From the NCBI GenBank assembly GCA_951640165.1, contig OX621245.1, positions 16,422,330-16,486,329 on the forward strand: a stretch of 64,000 nt of DNA, given 5' to 3'. How positions within the stretch are numbered: position 1 is the stretch's first letter; every line of letters starts with the position of its first letter. This DNA is from Pseudoips prasinana (lineage: Eukaryota > Arthropoda > Insecta > Lepidoptera > Nolidae). This document shows positions 751 to 52,633 of the stretch, piece by piece. Made by a program: the position numbers and the translations under genes. Under the pieces are notes generated by a model, which worked only from the letters and a program-made list of their open reading frames with translations, did no database searches and had not been told where the DNA came from.

Positions 751-870
751 TAAAAAAGAGGTTTATTCACACTTCAGAATAAAGAGTTCCTAAAAGTACC
801 TTACTTCCCAGCTAACTGCCACCCCCCACTGTATGTATATATTGCAACTTATCCGGACACGATTATATTT

Positions 871-1212
871 ATGAATCAAAACCAGGCAGACTATTTCAGA
901 GAGAACTCAAAGATGGTAGATTTTGACGCAATGTACACAGAACCCATATATTTCAATCAAGTTACAAATGGAACGCCAAACTTTCAGACTGAGAATCAGC
1001 AGATTTTTGATGAGAATCCAGTGATGTCTGAAAATAGTACAGAGATGGCTGAAAAAAAGAAACTTAAATATCCATTTATTGAGGAAACCTGTGGAAACAA
1101 ATGCAAGAGACAGTGTGATTTTTTTAAATTAGAGGAACGAAAATTAATATGGAACAATTACTGGGCCATGAATAACGAAAACCGCAGAAGCTTTTTAAAT
1201 AAGTGCACATAA
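871..1212 (+). CDS. Hypothetical 113-residue protein with Cys-rich C-terminal motif
   Basis: This intronless ORF starts at an ATG and ends in TAA. Its first 65 residues are polar (Asn, Gln and Glu rich). The C-terminal 45 residues carry CGNKCKRQC followed by an ER..IW..YW..N...RR.FL pattern. I recall similar motifs near the N-terminus of uncharacterised, often transposon-associated, proteins of insects, but cannot name a family. Such proteins normally continue well past this point, so the copy may be truncated. The translation after the stop at 1210-1212 breaks up quickly. No intron signals or clear poly(A) site define a transcript. The best guess is a truncated transposon-borne or domesticated gene fragment. 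Confidence 0.4.
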   Translation: MNQNQADYFRENSKMVDFDAMYTEPIYFNQVTNGTPNFQTENQQIFDENPVMSENSTEMAEKKKLKYPFIEETCGNKCKRQCDFFKLEERKLIWNNYWAMNNENRRSFLNKCT

Positions 1213-4251: not shown

Positions 4252-4261
4252 TACAAGATTA

Positions 4262-4425
4262 CTTGTAAAACACCAACAACGTCGCAGTACTAGATAGCTA
4301 ACATCATAAGCAACAACTATTATAACACGAGTTCGGACTTAACTCAATAGGTACATAAAAAAAATATTTTACCAGTATTTGTTGTACTCATCGTTACATT
4401 TGTAGGTCTATGTTTAACTCATACG
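4262..4425 (+). repeat. Interspersed repeat, shared with 12112-12280
   Basis: The block containing CAGTACTAGATAGCTAACAT and CATAAGCAACAAC recurs at about 12140-12170, with similar flanking sequence over about 160 bp. At the 12-kb site a second inverted piece is also present. I do not recognise the family. Confidence 0.55.
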
Positions 4426-6502: not shown

Positions 6503-6550
6503 ATGTCGTTGCCTCACCATAACAACCGAATAACATTGTTTTTATTAACA
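6503..6550 (+). CDS. Exon 1 of secreted-protein gene
   Basis: ATG plus 15 codons, ending in TTTTTATTAACA directly before a GTAAGA donor, phase 0. It encodes the n-region and first half of the signal-peptide hydrophobic core. Confidence 0.62.
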
Positions 6551-9500
6551 GTAAGAAATCACACATCTATTTCAATTTAATTGTCATTCATATTGTTATT
6601 TTTATGCTCGTGTCAACCTTTGTTAGTGGTTACCATCAGTCTTAAGCCAACCAGAAGAATTTCGATATAGCTGTTATCTAATGACTACAGTCGGAACCGA
6701 CAGCGATAGCCCTCTGAATCAAGAGGCTCAGAAATTAAACCACTTTCTTTCTTGCTTCTTCTATAAATTGGTGACTCGTATAAGTGCTTTATCTCGCATA
6801 TCGTTAACGGCGTACTGAAAGCCACACTGGTTATAAGCACTTCTCTTCATCATCATCATCATCATATCAGCCGAAAGACGTCCACTGCTGGACAAAGGCC
6901 TCCCCCAAAGATCTCCACAATTGCCGGTCTTGCGCTATCCGCATCCAGCGATTTCCAGCGACCCGCACAAGATCATCGGTCCATCTTGTAGGGGGCCTGC
7001 TCACGCTGCACTTCTCTTATTTTAAGTTAATTTGATCTTAATTTTCAGATCGTAGTTTCGTGTATAATTACTACAAGTGCCGACTCTCAACCCAGGACGA
7101 GTAAGTTCATCTTATGTAAAATTGTTTGGTACTCACTTAAATGAATAATATTTTATATTTATTTATATTTTTAGTTGGTATCAATCTCGGATTTGATGTA
7201 AATCAAGCAAGCGATGGATCCCATTCAATACTTATTAGAGATTTCCATGGTACCTACCTTAGCATTTTCCTCTGAATACATGTTTGTGCATAATACAAAG
7301 TGAGTAGTTACGTAATGGAATCGTGCGTTACTCTGCGGAAATCTATAACATTCAAAATAAGTAAAAGTTAATATGTACGTATACATATTTTATGCGGGCG
7401 CGAAGGCAGTGCATATTTCATTCCGGCTTGATTGAATTGACAATTTTTTTTGAATTTAATTAATTATATTATTTGTGTACAGTTTGATATATGTCAAACT
7501 GTACACAATCAAACATTTCGCATGCTGTTTATGAGTAAAATATATGAGACTAACCTAATAGTAAGACCACCACTGTACTCTATTTTTAAGTGAAATAAAT
7601 AAATGAATGAATAATATTTAATAACTAAATCTAGATAATGAATGATAAAAATATAAAAAAAATATATAATAGGTCTTTACCTATGAAATTGCCGTTTTGT
7701 ATGAAAAAATTTAAACGAATTTTTTTCATGAATTTTTTTATTTGTATTAATCGAAGTAATCACCCATGCAATCAATGCATCTTTGCCATCGCAGTGGCAG
7801 TTTATTGATGCCCTTCTTAAAGAAATCAGCTGGACGGGAGGCAACAAATTCTTCAAAGGCATTTTGTACTGCCTCTCGGGTATTGAATTTTTTTCCCGCC
7901 AAGAAGTTATCCAAATTCTGGAAAAAGTAGTAGTCTGTAGGCGCAAGGTCTGGTGAGTAGGGCGCATGACGGAGAGCTTCCAACCCCAGTTCTTGCAACT
8001 TGGAGACCGTCTGCTGTGCAGTATGAGGTCGCGCGTTGTCGTGCAGGAGCAGCGGAGACGAGCGATTGACCAATGCTGGTTGGAGATGCGCCAGCTTCTC
8101 CATCATTGTGCTCAGTTCTTCACAGTACACATCTGCAGTAATGCTCACCCCGTTTGGTAAGAAGCTGTGATGAATCACACCGGCGCTAGACCACCAAACA
8201 GTGACCATCACTTTTCTAGGGGTAAGTTTTCGTTTAGGGCATTGTTTAGGTGCTGAACCAGGATCCAACCAACTTGCTGAGCGCTTGCGGTTATCAAACA
8301 GAATCCATTTTTCATCGCAGGTAACAATGCGGTTCAAAATTCCTTAATTTGTGTGTCTGTTGAGCAGTGCAAGGCACGTCTCGACGCGTACTTCGCGCTG
8401 GCGATCATTGAGTTCGTGGGGCACCCATTTGTCAAGCTTTTTTACCTTGCCAATTTGACGCAAATGGACCAATATTATTTTGACGCTAACGTCGAAAGCT
8501 GCTGCTAATTCAGCCGTAGATTGTGTATCATCAGCTTCCACAACCGCCTTTAATTCGTCATTGTCGACCAAAGTCTTCGGACGACCGCGAGGTTCATTTT
8601 TCAGGTCGAAATTTCCAGAACGGAAGCGAGCAAACCAATAACAGGTGGTGCGTTGGTTTGTAGTGTTAGCTCCGTAAACGTCGTTGATGTTGCGTGCCGC
8701 TTGTGCCGCGTTGCTGCCACGACGGTACTCATATTCCATAATTACTCGAATTTTTAACGTATCCATGATGACGAAAAAGATTGAAATGCGATGAAAATGT
8801 AACACTAATCAATAAAGAAATGACTACTTTTGGAAAAAAGAATCCATGTTTTTAAAATAAAATTAATTTGAAATTAGAATTCTTAGCCAAACAAAAATTA
8901 TTTTGATTTGAAATGGCCAGTACTGCAGAACGGCAATTTCATAGGTAAAGACCTAATATAAGTAAAGAACAAAAATAATAATATATAATGTGGTTAGCTT
9001 ATATTTGAAACTAGCTAGGAAACTAAAAAATATAAAATAAAAAAATATTTAATAAATAAAATTAACAGCACATGTTAATTTTATTTCGAATATCCTTTTA
9101 AGGTTAAGAGTGGATGCATATACTTGCACAACAAAAACCGCCCTATACTGTTTACATAAATAATAAAATAATATCAAGCTTAAAGTGTATCCTCCGATGT
9201 AGTGTCGACGGTGTCGATGTCATGTGGAACAATCTCCAATCTCCTAGTCGAATTTCAGCCATGGCCAGTTTCAACAACACGAATGCATATGCAAACGCAG
9301 ATGCGCTCTCAAGCCTCACTCACGTGTTCCGATGGGACGAGCTAGCCAACACGGCTGAAGTGAAATCAAATGCAGGCCCAATGGCTTTATATGCTCTCCG
9401 ATACACGAGGGTGTAACACTACCCATATATGACTCCAAGCTGCTTCTGAGTATTTTTCTTGACAGAAAGGAAGCTCACTATTTTTTTTAACCACGGAGAT

Positions 9501-12500
9501 AATCTTCGCTTGGAAACGCTCCCGCTTTCTAGCGGTACAGGCAGTCGTCATGTGAAATTTTATTTGTTTTAGCATCTCAAGAACGATACGATGATCATGA
9601 ACGCTTGAAACCACAAAGGAGGGGGGGAGATTCTACGTCTAGTATGAGCAGTGATTCGAGTAGTGGCGACCTAGACTTAGACAAGGAGGAGAAGTCTGAT
9701 GAGCATGTGGCACGTAATAATAAAGAAAAAGATGATAATGACGACGAAGATGTCTTAAACTTAGACAGTAATTATTTCAACTTATTATATCTTTCCTTAA
9801 TATAATATGTATAGTTATATGACGACATGGTTTAAAATTTCTATTTCTATCAAAGGTACTATTTGTTTATTTAACTATATTCTAACTAAAAATTGTTCAA
9901 AAACCATAGAACCGTCTTCAAATCTTCTCGATTTCAAACGATTTTAAAAAAATGTATGTGGGATCACTCCTAAAGTGTTATTAAGCATCACTCAAAATAA
10001 AAGAAGCATACGCAAGAACACCGATGATGCAACGCAAGACTTGACTTAATCGATATCCTTGGGGAAAGCTTTTATCCCGCAGTGAACGTCTTTCAGCTGA
10101 TGATGATGATGATAATATGTAAAAACATGCACTGAAATTAATAATGTATTTTTGAAGTCGGCTAAAAATGGGAACGAAGTGAAATTAAGGGTAAGGATTT
10201 TCTACGGTGCTATTACATCACCTTCGACTAAGGTAGCTACGAAACAAACGCTAATAAAACTAAACAGTTATGTTGTCACTTACTGATACGTCTATGCCTA
10301 TATTCCCTTTTACAAATGAACTGTAGAATTTTCCATCTAAACAATCTTGTGCAGTGGACGTAGGTCTGACCACTTTAGTATCAATGTTGTGCTTACTCTT
10401 TTACTGGACGGAGTCATAGAATTCATAGACTTATGTAATGCAGTCCATTACTGTCCTACTGCAGGGAGAAGGAATCCTCTTTTCACGATGAGACCCCTCT
10501 CATCGTGAAAACACTAGACCATCGTGGTAGACTATGGCGTATCCCCATACGCCATAGTCTACCACGATGGTCTAGTGCCGGTGAGATAATAAATTTCTAA
10601 TAGGCAATTCGAAAAGTCAGTGGTGGCCTTGGGTTTTAACTCGAGACCACAGACACCACATCTCTTATTTATATAGCCATGGGGCGGCTAAACTTGTATC
10701 TTCCTGTAGATTTAGCGAAGGTTTGATTTGTTAGCGATATAAATTTTTATACAGATCTCACCTTCGATAAGCATTTGTTAGGTGCCTATTATAGACACCG
10801 TTCATCATAATGCCACAAACTGATTTATGAATCGTTTGTTTTACAGCTTCAGACTCTGAGAGACCTGATAGAGCAAGCACACGTGGACTTGCTGAAGAAG
10901 ATGTTGAAGAGCATTGTAAGTTAAAAACAGAAATAATGTAGAAAAATTGCCCTACCTAAACTGATTAGGAAAACGAAAGTCAGCACTCTGATGGGACTGG
11001 CTGGAAGCATTCACATCGAGACGTATATTTCATCGCTGGTGGTTGGTTATCTAACAACAATTTTCTTTGGGTTCGATCTGTTACACAACTCAGGCATTAC
11101 AGATAGAACTAGTTCTAGTTTAGCTAGTCTGCTCTTCGTTATGTACTCAAGTAAAAAGCGGGGTAAGCGTGAACAGTGGCCGATATTATCCTATTCTCAT
11201 ATCATTGAGCTCACGTTATGAGTATGTTAAACAACGCAGGTATTACGTATGGCATGAGCTCTCCATTCGTTTGTCTGTTGTCCCATGGCAAGTACTCTAG
11301 GAAACAAACGGATTCAATGTATAGAAGGAGCGACACTTTATCCTATACTGAGTACGCTGTATTTTGCTTCATTGGTCTAGCGGCAGCGTGTTCACACGCA
11401 GAGAACGAAGTCCTGGGTTCAAATCCCTGGTCGGACAGAATGTGTTTTTGGGACTTTTCTACAACGAAACAAACTCAGCGGGTTTCTCTACTACCGGTTT
11501 CAACACGGCCCAGTTGAGACACTCCGGCGAAACATACTCAATGGGGCATATACACGAAATTTGGTCCACTTACTGAAATTATTTAGCCTTTGTCCAGCTG
11601 TGGGCGTCTTTCGGCTGATATGATGTTGAACGCCTTAAGTATCTCACGTTATTCGCAATGTAACATTTAGGCCTGGCTCACTTTTTTTAAATTTGGATTG
11701 TAATTTTAATACCCTATTTTAGAGTAATGTGTATACACTAAACTCATTACAATTTTTTTATTGTAGATAACCCAAAAAGGCCCCTAAGAGAGGATTTGGA
11801 AGACATCCCTCCTTCGGATGGTAAGTAAAATATTCAAAATAATACTATCGTTTTAATGGCCAAATAAAATTTTGAAAATTTAAAGAAATGCTCTATCAAA
11901 ATTATGGAATTTCAAATCAATCATTTACGATTACAACCGAACGATATTATTCATAAGCGGCTATTATTTACAAAACAATCGTCATAAAATCTAGTAAAAA
12001 CCTATCTATCTCTCAGTTTCTACTGAATTGTAATACGGTTCTTCCTATTAGGCTTATTTTTGCCCATACGTGAATTAGCTGACACGCTAGGCAACTTTAT
12101 GGTGAATAACAAGGTTATTTTTAAAACACCAACAACCTTGCAGTACTAGATAGCTAACATCATAAGCAACAACTTATGTTCTACGAGTTCGGACATAACT
12201 CAAAACATGATAAATAAATGTTTTTTTTTGTACTGACGCATGTCGTGACATTTTTTGGTCTATGTTTCATTCATGAACCAAAGGGCGGCGACGCGCGAAC
12301 GACGCTAAGCTCACGGGCGTGTGCCCGTCTTTGCGATACTCGTAGGTAGAGTTCACACATTCAAGGGGGAAATTAAATTAATACTTATTTTTGTATGAAA
12401 ATAAAATCTAAACAATGTATTTAAAGTTGTTGCTTATGGTGTTTGCAAGGTTTTTGGTGTTATAGAAGCAGTGTAACAAGCTACACCGTACCTACCGTAG

Positions 12501-12910
12501 AAGTACGGGATTTTTTACTTATAGGTACACGGTCTACGGTAACGATTCACTACCGTGTAAATTTACGATAATTTTAAATACTGGTGGTAATCTTACACTG
12601 AATTTAACATAGCAAGCTAATCAAATTTTAGTTCAAAAATAACATAGATCATATATAAAGGTTTTCGGATTTGCAACAATATTCGCCTACCCCAGATTGG
12701 TAAAAAGTGCTGTTTTAAGGCCCGCCAGACGATTATATTTAGGTATGATTTTGAGATATCCTTACCAGTATATATCTGTTTAAATTAAGAGATTTGCTTT
12801 ACTTTCATGTTTAATTAATTAAAGATATTATGCTCTGTGTTACAGAAGAGGTGAGGCGTCGTCGTCATCGCCGTTCTTCTCAACATAATGACTATCCCAG
12901 ATTTATATAA
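6503..12910 (+). CDS. Seven-exon gene for a secreted, acidic, Ser-rich protein of 185 residues (family unknown)
   Basis: I joined exons 6503-6550, 7049-7100, 7175-7249, 9573-9767, 10847-10915, 11767-11820 and 12846-12910. The sum is 558 nt in one open frame from ATG to TAA. Intron 1 is phase 0 and the other five are phase 1. For five of the six internal and terminal exons downstream of exon 1 only the chosen frame gives a continuous protein. Residues 1-27 form a textbook signal peptide (hydrophobic ITLFLLTIVVSCIITTSA), split by intron 1, so the protein should be secreted. Residues 59-123 are rich in Ser, Asp, Glu and Lys. Residues 168-174 are RRRRHRR, followed by an 11-residue tail. A poly(A) signal lies 36 bases after the stop. 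I recognise no domain. A prohormone-like or matrix protein are both possible. The weakest point is the exon 4 donor (ACA/GTAATT). Confidence 0.7.
6848..7007 (-). mobile_element. 5'-truncated RTE-type LINE 3' end, 160 bp
   Basis: Read on the minus strand this is the last part of an RTE ORF (DLVRVAGNRWMRIA-like through WRSLGEAFVQQWTSFG) ending in an ATG/GAT repeat tail. It is bounded by a perfect 11-bp target-site duplication GCACTTCTCTT (6837-6847 and 7008-7018). It sits in intron 1 of the secreted-protein gene. Other fragments of the family are at 16993-17241 and 29853-30267. Confidence 0.82.
7049..7100 (+). CDS. Exon 2 of secreted-protein gene
   Basis: A 52-nt exon between a TTTTCAG acceptor and a GTAAGT donor. 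It encodes IVVSCIITTSADSQPRT, completing the signal peptide (likely cleavage after TTSA), and leaves the frame in phase 1. Confidence 0.65.
7175..7249 (+). CDS. Exon 3 of secreted-protein gene
   Basis: A 75-nt exon after a 74-nt intron, with a TTTTTAG acceptor and a GTACCT donor. Only the phase-1 frame is open. It encodes the start of the mature protein (IGINLGFDVNQASDGSHS). Confidence 0.58.
7473..7508. repeat. Short perfect hairpin
   Basis: 15-bp arms TTGTGTACAGTTTGA pair perfectly around a 6-base TATATG loop, inside intron 3 of the secreted-protein gene. No associated element is recognised. Confidence 0.6.
7672..8953 (-). mobile_element. Near-complete mariner element, 1282 bp
   Basis: Perfect inverted ends starting GGTCTTTACCTATGAAATTG match over 25 bp and continue imperfectly. 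They are flanked by TA on each side (7670-7671 and 8954-8955). The interior encodes a mariner transposase on the minus strand, with short UTR-like stretches at both ends. Length and structure are those of a full element. It lies antisense in intron 3 of the secreted-protein gene. Confidence 0.93.
7747..8766 (-). pseudogene. Mariner transposase with one in-frame stop
   Basis: The frame runs from the ATG at 8766 (MDTLKIRVIMEYEY) to the stop at 7747, 339 residues, close to the usual 340-350. The N-terminal third holds the two helix-turn-helix regions and the linker motif WVPHEL. The catalytic domain has the three Asp residues in TCDEKW, HDNARPH and YSPDLAPTDY, with 34 residues between the second and third Asp (DD34D, the mariner signature). 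The only visible lesion is a TAA at 8344-8346 between the linker and the first catalytic Asp. The frame is otherwise intact on both sides, suggesting a young insertion. Confidence 0.92.
9573..9767 (+). CDS. Exon 4 of secreted-protein gene (Ser/Asp/Glu-rich)
   Basis: The acceptor is TTTGTTTTAG. Only phase 1 is open at this 5' end. It encodes SQERYDDHERLKPQRR, then a Ser-rich run and an acidic stretch ending in VLNLD. The donor ACA/GTAATT is weak. An alternative GT at 9752 would change phase and lead to a stop in exon 6. Confidence 0.6.
10480..10511. repeat. Perfect hairpin, 14-bp arms, CCCC loop
   Basis: TTTTCACGATGAGA pairs perfectly with its complement across a CCCC loop. A second perfect hairpin abuts it at 10512. 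Both lie in intron 4 of the secreted-protein gene. Confidence 0.85.
10512..10577. repeat. Perfect hairpin, 31-bp arms, CCCC loop
   Basis: Arms 10512-10542 and 10547-10577 are exact reverse complements around CCCC. The left arm starts CACTAGACCATCGTGG. The lack of any mismatch implies a very recent origin or active maintenance. Confidence 0.88.
10847..10915 (+). CDS. Exon 5 of secreted-protein gene
   Basis: A 69-nt exon with a TTTTACAG acceptor and a GTAAGT donor. In phase 1 it reads TSDSERPDRASTRGLAEEDV. Phase 0 is also open, but only phase 1 continues through exon 6. Confidence 0.65.
10980..11350 (+). repeat. Degenerate tandem repeat, period about 137 bp
   Basis: Two diverged units can be aligned by eye: one from ACACAACTCAGGCATTAC, the other from AAACAACGCAGGTATTAC. 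Both continue through CTGTTTGT/CTGCTCTT, TACTC-AG, AAAC/AAGC and a TTATCCTAT block. They lie in intron 5 and are not part of the spliced frame. Confidence 0.4.
11366..11577 (+). repeat. tRNA-headed SINE-like repeat
   Basis: The head contains TTGGTCTAGCGGCAGCGTG (A-box-like) and TGGGTTCAAATCCCTGG (B-box-like), the spacing of a tRNA-derived promoter. The body ends with CAATGGGGCATATACACGAAA. A diverged relative of the tail lies at 29250-29410. An RTE tail fragment follows directly (11578-11625). The head cannot fold as a complete tRNA, so this is a SINE and not a tRNA gene. Confidence 0.55.
11767..11820 (+). CDS. Exon 6 of secreted-protein gene
   Basis: A 54-nt exon with a TTGTAG acceptor and a GTAAGT donor. 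Phase 1 reads YNPKRPLREDLEDIPPSD. Both other phases hit stops within 20 bases. Confidence 0.68.
12112..12470. repeat. Fold-back repeat related to 4262-4425
   Basis: The left end carries CACCAACAACCTTGC and CATAAGCAACAACTT. The right end carries the inverted forms AAGTTGTTGCTTATG and GCAAGG, giving imperfect inverted repeats of about 40 bp. It lies in intron 6. There is no coding content. Confidence 0.5.
12846..12910 (+). CDS. Last exon of secreted-protein gene
   Basis: The acceptor is GTGTTACAG. It encodes EEV, then the polybasic RRRRHRR, then SSQHNDYPRFI and a TAA stop. An AATAAA signal follows at 12946. Confidence 0.7.
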
Positions 12911-12945: not shown

Positions 12946-12951
12946 AATAAA
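12946..12951 (+). terminator. Poly(A) signal of secreted-protein gene
   Basis: AATAAA lies 36 bases after the stop codon, in AT-rich sequence with a T-rich stretch upstream and further T-runs downstream. It is well placed to end the transcript. Confidence 0.6.
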
Positions 12952-16524: not shown

Positions 16525-16780
16525 AATAATAATAATATCTAGCGACAATGTCACACTGATCATCCTAGCCCCAAACTAAGCAAAGCTTGTACTATGGGTA
16601 CCAGGCGACGATATACATACTTATATAGATAGATAAATACTTATATACTTACATAGAAAACATCCATGACTCAGAAACAAATATTCGTGCTCATCACACA
16701 AATATTTGCACTTACCGGTATACGAACTCAGGACCACCAGCTTCGTAGGCAGGAGCACTACCAACTAGGCTACGGTGACA
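16525..16780 (-). mobile_element. tRNA-derived SINE, family B, copy 1
   Basis: Minus strand: the head GTCACCGTAGCCTAGTTGGT and a B-box-like GGTCCTGAGTTCG lead into a body with AATATTTGTTTCTGAGTCAT and ATGTATATCGTCGCCTGGTA. The unit ends in CTAGATATTATTATTATT. Copy 2 at 51287-51530 is nearly identical, pointing to recent activity. Confidence 0.78.
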
Positions 16781-16992: not shown

Positions 16993-17241
16993 GGCACATA
17001 GATCGTAAAACCGATGGCCGTTGGGACATAAAGGTTCTCGAGTGGCGACCACGAAGCGGAAGACGCACCCACGCTGCGTCCTCAGCTTCCTGACCGCCTG
17101 CAAGATGGACCGTTGATCTTCTGCGGGTCGCTGGAAACCGCTGGATGGGAATAGCGCAAGACCGGCAATTGTGGAGATCTTTAGGGGAGGCCGTTGTCCA
17201 GCCGTGGACGTCTTTCGGCTGATATGATGATGATGATGATG
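16993..17241 (+). mobile_element. 5'-truncated RTE-type LINE 3' end
   Basis: The + strand carries the diverged end of the RTE ORF (DGRWDIKVLEWRP-like through WRSLGEAVVQPWTSFG) and a GATGATGAT tail. It is bounded by a 9-bp target duplication AAGTGAGGC (16984-16992 and 17242-17250). Confidence 0.8.
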
Positions 17242-17590
17242 AAGTGAGGCAGAGCTTTTTGATACCTACAAGGTATAACATAAATAGTGGAGTAAACTTA
17301 AGGAATACTATCTATTAATGGAACTGAACCAATTAGCATAGAATTATACTGTGGTTCAGTTAATACTATGCTAATTGTTTCATTAACTTTAACATAATAT
17401 GGATATTATTTACAAGGTTAGTCCAACTATGACCTGCCATATTGTGGTAACAACGGCGAAAATCATTATATCATCACCCCACTACATATGTGGGGGGCGT
17501 AGAAGTCAACCCGAGGGCGGATATCTAAGTACCAGAGGACGGGAAGCAACTTCCTTCTGAGTATTTTGCAACAATCTTCTTACATAATAC

Positions 17591-17904
17591 TGTAAGCACA
17601 CTCGCAGCTGCAAGAGGTATTTCTATACGGGATCTAGGGAGATCTTCTCAATGATAACACATGTATTCACAAACAATCACTGATTTTATTGAAATAAAAT
17701 TAGATTCACAATGTTTACTTTAGCACACCATTTTTATAACTCCTGACAAACATCAATCAAACGTAACCCCATACTTTTTATTTGATTCGAATTCGATTCT
17801 CATTTTAAAAGCTATGTTTAGTTATTTTAATAAAATTACCAGAGCTACTAGCTATCTTGATAAAAGAGGTTTTATTCTATAGGAGGGCAGGTAATATCAT
17901 TACA
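17591..17904 (-). repeat. 3' LTR (minus orientation)
   Basis: 314 bp, TG...CA. On the minus strand it begins TGTAATGATATTACCTGCCC and ends GAGTGTGCTTACA. It contains AATAAA-type and T-rich signals usable for poly(A) addition. Confidence 0.88.
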
Positions 17905-19263: not shown

Positions 19264-19803
19264 TTAAATTATTGTTACTAAAAAAATAGATAGGGCTTGG
19301 TAGTAGAATGGTGAATTTAAAGTTTTATTTAATAGTGGTTGGCAAATATTTAGTAGTGGTTCACCCTTAAACTTAAGGTAAAAAAAAAATATTCGCCAGA
19401 TATTCATACAAAATTTTATGCGAATCGGGCCAGCCGTTTCGGAGATGTTTGGTCGCAAACACCGTGACATGATAATTCCACATTTTTGATGTAATCTATA
19501 AAAGTATTCTAAAATATCTTCCTCAAATTTCTGTCTTGTCATATAAAATTGTTCTACATAGTCGATAGTCCCTGAAAATTCCTCCAGAAAAGCCTTTTCA
19601 ATGTCGGCAAATTCTGTTGCCGTATCTACTATTACATTGTAGAACGATAGTGCTGCTCCTTGCAGAAAAGACGGGATGATCGCTACTTTTTCTTCATCTG
19701 AAAATCTTTTTACGATAGAAAATCTTTTAAATTGTTTGAAAAACTCCTTCGCATCTTGTTTCAAACCATTAAATAATTGTAAATTCACGCTTGTCGATTC
19801 CAT
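19264..19803 (-). CDS. Gag-like protein of the LTR element
   Basis: A 179-residue ORF starts 97 bases after the 5' LTR. Residues 1-110 look like a retrotransposon Gag/capsid region: KEFFKQFKRFS, EEKVAIIPSFLQGAALSFY, an acidic helix and FEEDILEYFYRLHQKCG. The C-terminal third is of different character and may come from a repeat that inserted near 19360-19500 and closed the frame. There is no CCHC zinc knuckle and no pol. It is shorter than a normal Gag, so it may be inactive. Confidence 0.7.
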   Translation of the reverse strand: MESTSVNLQLFNGLKQDAKEFFKQFKRFSIVKRFSDEEKVAIIPSFLQGAALSFYNVIVDTATEFADIEKAFLEEFSGTIDYVEQFYMTRQKFEEDILEYFYRLHQKCGIIMSRCLRPNISETAGPIRIKFCMNIWRIFFFYLKFKGEPLLNICQPLLNKTLNSPFYYQALSIFLVTII

Positions 19804-19886
19804 ATTTTCTTACTTTTCTCTAGATTTCTTGTAAATCTTGTTAAGTCTCCCCTTTGAAAACTTCAAAATCTTTTCAAATAACCAAA

Positions 19887-19900: not shown

Positions 19901-20214
19901 TGTAAGCACACTCGCAGCTGCAAGAGGTATTTCTATACGGGATCTAGGGAGATCTTCTCAATGATAACACATGTATTCACAAACAATCACTGATTTTATT
20001 GAAATAAAATTAGATTCACAATGTTTACTTTAGCACACCATTTTTATAACTCCTGACAAACATCAATCAAACGTAACCCCATACTTTTTATTTGATTCGA
20101 ATTCGATTCTCATTTTAAAAGCTATGTTTAGTTATTTTAATAAAATGACCAGAGCTACTAGCTATCTTGATAAAAGAGGTTTTATTCTATAGGAGGGCAG
20201 GTAATATCATTACA
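19901..20214 (-). repeat. 5' LTR (minus orientation)
   Basis: 314 bp, matching the LTR at 17591-17904 except for one base. It provides the promoter for the minus-strand transcript. Confidence 0.88.

Positions 20215-27781: not shown

Positions 27782-52633
<24,852 letters not shown>

What the first reader, a model, noticed from the sequence alone, without database searches (positions are those of the whole stretch)
6503..12910. Unrecognised seven-exon secreted protein gene hidden in tiny exons
Every exon is 48-195 nt and would be missed by ORF calling. Joined, they give a perfect signal peptide split across an intron, consistent phases, open frames, a stop and a poly(A) signal. The mature protein is acidic and Ser-rich and matches no family I know. 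Seen: splice sites, phases, frame. Inferred: that all seven exons belong to one transcript.
Basis: partly seen in the sequence, partly recalled or inferred. Interest (0 to 1): 0.75.

Follow-up and report, generated by a model that had tools for sequence, protein, structure and literature searches.

The report
Possible moth secreted-protein gene
A stretch of moth DNA probably holds a real, so far unnamed single-copy gene for a small acidic protein that may be secreted, but its two ends are uncertain and nothing yet shows that it is expressed or conserved.

Summary
Splice sites and open phases alone do not convince: an equally good 7-exon chain occurs in 4 of 60 resampled regions and 6 of 40 real locus-strands. 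What convinces is content: exon 4's acidity (21 D/E of 65) is matched by 0 of 561 open segments in 256.5 kb of the same genome, exon 5's by 6 of 6863, in the phase that splicing demands. The protein's only matches in the 1.126-Gb genome are these seven exons: single-copy, not a repeat. The signal-peptide leader is plausible (5 of 96 control acceptors have one as good); the last exon is one of 11 that fit. No relative was found, but these searches mostly see close kin. Best reading: a real, perhaps lineage-restricted gene for a small acidic, largely disordered protein, probably secreted, possibly cut at RRRRHRR. Exons 4-5 are solid, exon 6 likely, exons 1-3 and 7 tentative. It fails tests for aphid bicycle genes, schistosome micro-exon genes and seroins. 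Interest is modest.

The parts
6503..6550 (+). Candidate exon 1: ATG and first half of a signal peptide (tentative)
   Evidence: in-frame stop just upstream; donor gtaaga.: with exon 2 it is the signal-peptide-like start found among 7 in-phase leaders at the stricter thresholds; 5 of 96 control acceptors have one as good
7049..7100 (+). Candidate exon 2: second half of signal peptide, putative cleavage after Ala27 (tentative)
   Evidence: acceptor in top 1.2% of window AGs, donor gtaagt in top 1.2% of GTs; 1229 of 11516 background open segments hold a stretch as hydrophobic
7175..7249 (+). Candidate exon 3 (75 nt, phase 1-1; least certain, frame-neutral if skipped)
   Evidence: phases; weak donor (11.6% of GTs as good); composition unremarkable (3748 of 6071 segments as polar); tblastn of the chain in the own genome hits only here
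9573..9767 (+). Exon 4 (195 nt): acidic Ser-rich core; strongest coding evidence
   Evidence: 21 D/E of 65, 0 of 561 open segments match; other two forward frames hold 6 and 13 stops; its 10 Ser use both TCN (5) and AGY (5) codons; donor weak
10847..10915 (+). Exon 5 (69 nt, phase 1-1), acidic
   Evidence: 8 D/E of 23, 6 of 6863 open segments match; strong acceptor (top 1.2%) and good donor
11767..11820 (+). Exon 6 (54 nt, phase 1-1), acidic
   Evidence: 5 D/E of 18, 133 of 9497 segments match; donor in top 0.4% of GTs, acceptor in top 0.8% of AGs
12846..12910 (+). Candidate terminal exon 7: EEVRRRRHRRSSQHNDYPRFI and stop (tentative)
   Evidence: one of 11 in-phase terminal exons that fit exon 6, 7th by acceptor score, but with the nearest AATAAA (36 nt) of the 11
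12946..12951 (+). AATAAA, possible poly(A) signal
   Evidence: such hexamers occur 2.1 per kb on this strand, so weak on its own
7665..8960 (-). Mariner-type DNA transposon inside intron 3 (not part of the gene)
   Evidence: 35-nt inverted ends, 94%; PF01359 1.2e-23, PF17906 Mos1 HTH 2.4e-19

Best explanation
A real single-copy moth gene on the + strand encodes a small acidic, mostly disordered protein. Shown: exons and frame are there; exons 4 and 5 (and with less weight 6) have coding-type content in the phase dictated by splicing; no other copy in the genome. Inferred: exons 1-2 supply a signal peptide (cleavage after about Ala27), so the product enters the secretory pathway; the D/E/S stretch stays unfolded and may be phosphorylated (three S-x-E sites) and act as an acidic, ion- or protein-binding or spacer segment; proprotein convertases could cut at RRRRHRR and free an 11-residue tail, SSQHNDYPRFI. 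Symmetric phase-1 exons 3-6 would let the moth drop or add segments by alternative splicing without a frameshift.
For: Exact coordinates and phases. Acidity of exon 4: 0 of 561, exon 5: 6 of 6863, exon 6: 133 of 9497 open segments from 256.5 kb of the same genome. Seven matches at E<=10 in 1.126 Gb, all at these exons (9 candidates scored). Codon-position G+C 53/40/33% and purine-rich first positions. Charge-hydropathy value negative (disordered) for residues 58-185, slightly positive (+0.05) for 28-58; net charge -16 from residue 28, +6 for residues 167-185.
Against: Splice-plus-phase chains as good arise in 4 of 60 resampled and 6 of 40 real locus-strands, and with codon score in 4 of 12 resamples. 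Leader as good in 5 of 96 controls. Two weak donors. No synonymous codon bias. No homologue. No RNA evidence available.
Confidence: 0.5

Rival explanations
1. Real gene, wrong ends: exons 4-6 belong to a gene whose true first and/or last exons are others, and the product is an intracellular (for instance nuclear) acidic protein. Signal peptide and/or exon 7 are accidental.
For: 5 of 96 control acceptors have an equally good accidental leader; looser thresholds give a leader with a different third exon scoring slightly higher, 12.0 against 11.4; ten other terminal exons fit exon 6, six with better acceptors; weak donor at 7249.
Against: At strict thresholds only the exon 1+2 start is signal-peptide-like among 7 leaders; exon 7 has the nearest AATAAA of the 11 candidates.
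Confidence: 0.3
2. Chance chain: no working gene; an accidentally open, GAN-rich stretch joined to ordinary AT-rich intergenic splice-like sites, or a decayed gene.
For: Chains of this splice quality occur by chance; codon usage is null-like; no homologue.
Against: Exon 4 composition 0 of 561 and exon 5 6 of 6863 in the same genome; Ser in exon 4 is written with both TCN and AGY codons, unlike a simple repeat; no in-frame stop in seven exons; not a repeat.
Confidence: 0.12
3. Peptide precursor: the acidic part is a pro-region and the basic C-terminal piece after RRRRHRR is the active peptide (neuropeptide-like or antimicrobial). Same gene as the best explanation, with a specific job.
For: Signal-peptide-like start, dibasic/polybasic sites at residues 74, 150, 168-174; net charge -17 for residues 76-147 against +6 for 167-185.
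Against: No Gly for amidation, no cysteines in the mature part, no N-glycosylation site; no conserved peptide could be shown; exon 7, which carries the tail, is the weakest 3' call.
Confidence: 0.08

Closest known systems
Aphid bicycle genes (PMC9168663; passages seen)
   Same: Many small exons starting at codon position 2 (intron phase 1), predicted signal sequence, no outside homology
   Different: No CYC motif (only Cys is residue 21); 7 exons against a mean of about 17; published classifier gives logit -9.6 against a probability cutoff of 0.72; single-copy rather than a large family; other insect order
Schistosome micro-exon genes (PMC10526429; abstract and passages seen)
   Same: Short exons mostly multiples of three, long introns, signal peptide, hard for gene finders
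   Different: Those have 10-20 exons, mostly far shorter (majority 15 nt, up to 81); here 7 exons of 48-195 nt; no family in the genome
Seroins, small lepidopteran silk proteins (PMC6405961; passages seen)
   Same: Signal peptide, modules rich in Ser, Glu and Asp, size up to about 250 residues, splice isoforms
   Different: Class marks absent: no Trp, no RYGG, no VYGE, no Pro-rich linker; not shown to be made in silk gland

Membership tests
Aphid bicycle genes | CYC motif(s) in the mature protein | tested here: not met
   Only one Cys, residue 21, inside the signal peptide
Aphid bicycle genes | Gene-structure classifier above 0.72 | tested here: not met
   Logit -9.59 with the published coefficients; trained on an aphid, so only indicative
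Aphid bicycle genes | Internal exons start at codon position 2 | tested here: met
   4 of 5 internal exons, plus the last exon
Schistosome micro-exon genes | 10-20 very short exons (6-81 nt) | tested here: not met
   7 exons of 48-195 nt; range from PMC10526429
Seroins | Class marks: Trp near residue 20 or 35, RYGG, VYGE | tested here: not met
   No W in the mature part; no W, RYGG or VYGE in the 185-residue sequence as printed, read by eye
Secreted protein (any) | N-terminal signal peptide | tested here: inconclusive
   Hydrophobic core and small residues present by a crude home-made score; 5 of 96 controls as good; no SignalP run
Neuropeptide or antimicrobial precursor | Convertase sites releasing a conserved peptide | tested here: inconclusive
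   Polybasic sites present; conservation not testable, no related genome held
Any Pfam family | Profile match | tested here: not met
   0 families at E<=1 among 24736

The most novel reading that the evidence does not exclude
A lineage-restricted secreted precursor in moths, built from symmetric phase-1 exons, whose acidic disordered pro-region is cut by furin-type enzymes to release a short basic-flanked C-terminal peptide of no known family.
Probability: 0.1. Interest if true: 0.5.

Novelty: new member of a known kind. Interest (0 to 1): 0.28.

Why it matters
If confirmed it is one more fast-evolving, small, acidic orphan protein that ORF calling and homology-based annotation would pass over, and its uniform phase-1 exons would make it a test case for finding such genes by structure rather than sequence. 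It does not by itself open a new mechanism.

Tried and rejected
Codon usage as evidence: trained on 36 TCP-1 exon pieces of the same genome (2511 codons); it scored the real Atg16 exons worse than background, so I discarded it as uninformative. Splice-only chain test: not significant. Paralogue hunt: none beyond the locus. Viral-contig scan with exon 4: 37 pattern matches, none confirmed. Protein search with residues 18-80: no candidate. Literature on unannotated, short-exon or acidic secreted lepidopteran genes: nothing that names this gene was seen in the listings; one search returned 0 papers. Paper search for Atg16 synteny: nothing useful. Bicycle, MEG and seroin membership: tested and rejected.

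Full report
What was checked. The window lies at C11:16422330-16486329 of a 1.126-Gb, 56-contig genome. That it is lepidopteran follows from the reverse transcriptase in the window: among the 120 best listed relatives, those that carried a species name and that I read were moths or butterflies. The seven exons were read out and joined: lengths 48, 52, 75, 195, 69, 54, 65; 558 nt; 185 residues and a stop; intron phases 0,1,1,1,1,1. The acidic mature part (residues 29-185) has 15% Asp, 10% Glu, 13% Ser, 12% Arg and a computed pI of 4.8. AATAAA begins at 12946.

Is it more than chance? By splice sites and phases alone, no. With a matrix trained partly on this genome, the chain scores 30.4 bits; 4 of 60 resampled regions and 6 of 40 real 8-kb locus-strands contain a 7-exon open chain at least as good, and the same region holds one of 41.8. 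Adding a codon score did not help (4 of 12 resamples higher), but that score fails on Atg16 exons in this very window, so it says little either way. Two donors are weak (7249 and 9767).

By content, yes for the middle of the gene. In 256.5 kb of the same genome (20 fetched stretches plus the rest of the window, both strands), 0 of 561 open segments long enough contain a 65-residue stretch with 21 or more Asp/Glu like exon 4; 6 of 6863 match exon 5 (8 of 23); 133 of 9497 match exon 6 (5 of 18). Exon 7's polar content is matched by 221 of 7833, the hydrophobic core by 1229 of 11516, and exon 3 is unremarkable (3748 of 6071). In exon 4 the other two forward frames hold 6 and 13 stops, and the ten Ser use five TCN and five AGY codons, which is hard to get from a simple repeat. 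The test was chosen after seeing the sequence, so I treat exons 4 and 5 as very likely coding and exon 6 as likely, not proven.

The two ends. Upstream of exon 4, seven in-phase leaders of one to three exons exist at strict thresholds; the signal-peptide-like ones (2 of 7) both use exons 1 and 2, one with and one without exon 3. In a control, 5 of 96 acceptors with an open frame had a leader as good (splice at least 8.1 and hydrophobic core at least 2.9), and 21 of 96 had some signal-peptide-like leader. At looser thresholds a leader with a different third exon scores slightly higher (12.0 against 11.4). So the secreted start is plausible at about the 5% level. Exon 7 is seventh of 11 terminal exons by acceptor but has the closest AATAAA.

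Copies and relatives. A six-frame search of the whole genome with the protein gave seven matches at E<=10, which are the seven exons, out of 9 candidates scored: single-copy and not transposon-derived. Pfam, PDB sequences (one match at E = 1, not significant) and two searches of a 5.8-billion-protein collection found no relative. The collection does hold lepidopteran proteins, but it demands shared exact 5-residue words, so a fast-evolving orthologue could be missed. No related genome is held, so conservation could not be tested.

How it probably works. If exons 1-2 are right, the product enters the secretory pathway. Residues 58-185 fall on the disordered side of the charge-hydropathy line; residues 28-58 do not. 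Three S-x-E sites could be phosphorylated by secretory kinases, and RRRRHRR fits a furin-type cut that would free SSQHNDYPRFI; both are inferences from motif knowledge, not tested. Exons 3-6 are all phase 1-1 and can be skipped without a frameshift.

Compared with what is known. Uniform phase-1 small exons with a signal sequence recall aphid bicycle genes (PMC9168663, passages), but there is no CYC motif and the published classifier rejects it (logit -9.6). Exon sizes and number exclude a schistosome-type micro-exon gene (PMC10526429, passages). Seroins share acidic and Ser-rich modules but their class marks are missing (PMC6405961, passages). It is best filed as a probable orphan gene of an ordinary kind.

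Neighbourhood. The introns carry repeats: a repeat fragment at 6842-7010 (copies at 17094-17247 and 30117-30268), a mariner with 35-nt ends at 7665-8960 and a repeat at 12109-12226 (copy at 4253-4370). An Atg16-like gene follows on the same strand.

Noticed in passing
32238-51803 (+), ORFs at 32238-32465, 34386-34715, 51582-51803: Exons of an Atg16-like gene: Pfam ATG16 2.5e-11 and 1.7e-8, WD40 6.9e-10. Open frames at 29670 and 49517 look like further exons by eye but had no Pfam match.
   Followed up: partly
7665-8960 (-): Mariner-type element with 35-nt inverted ends (94%); its transposase frame is split by one in-frame stop into two adjacent ORFs.
   Followed up: partly
36260-38392 (-): Non-LTR retrotransposon: reverse transcriptase ORF (PF00078 2.2e-32), best relative 59% identical; an endonuclease-like ORF lies next to it by eye.
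   Followed up: partly
17591-17890 and 19901-20200: Two 300-nt direct repeats, 100% identical, around an ORF at 19264-19809 (-) that looks gag-like by eye: probably a young, short LTR element (Pfam gave nothing above cut-off).
   Followed up: no
51368-51530 and 16617-16779: Dispersed repeat (90% alike) whose one copy scores as tRNA in Rfam on the - strand (51458-51530): probably a tRNA-derived SINE.
   Followed up: no
10512-10577: Near-perfect hairpin (arms of about 31 nt, 4-nt loop) in intron 4, seen by eye.
   Followed up: no
754-1212 (+): 152-residue open frame with a Cys-rich C-terminal half and no Pfam match.
   Followed up: no
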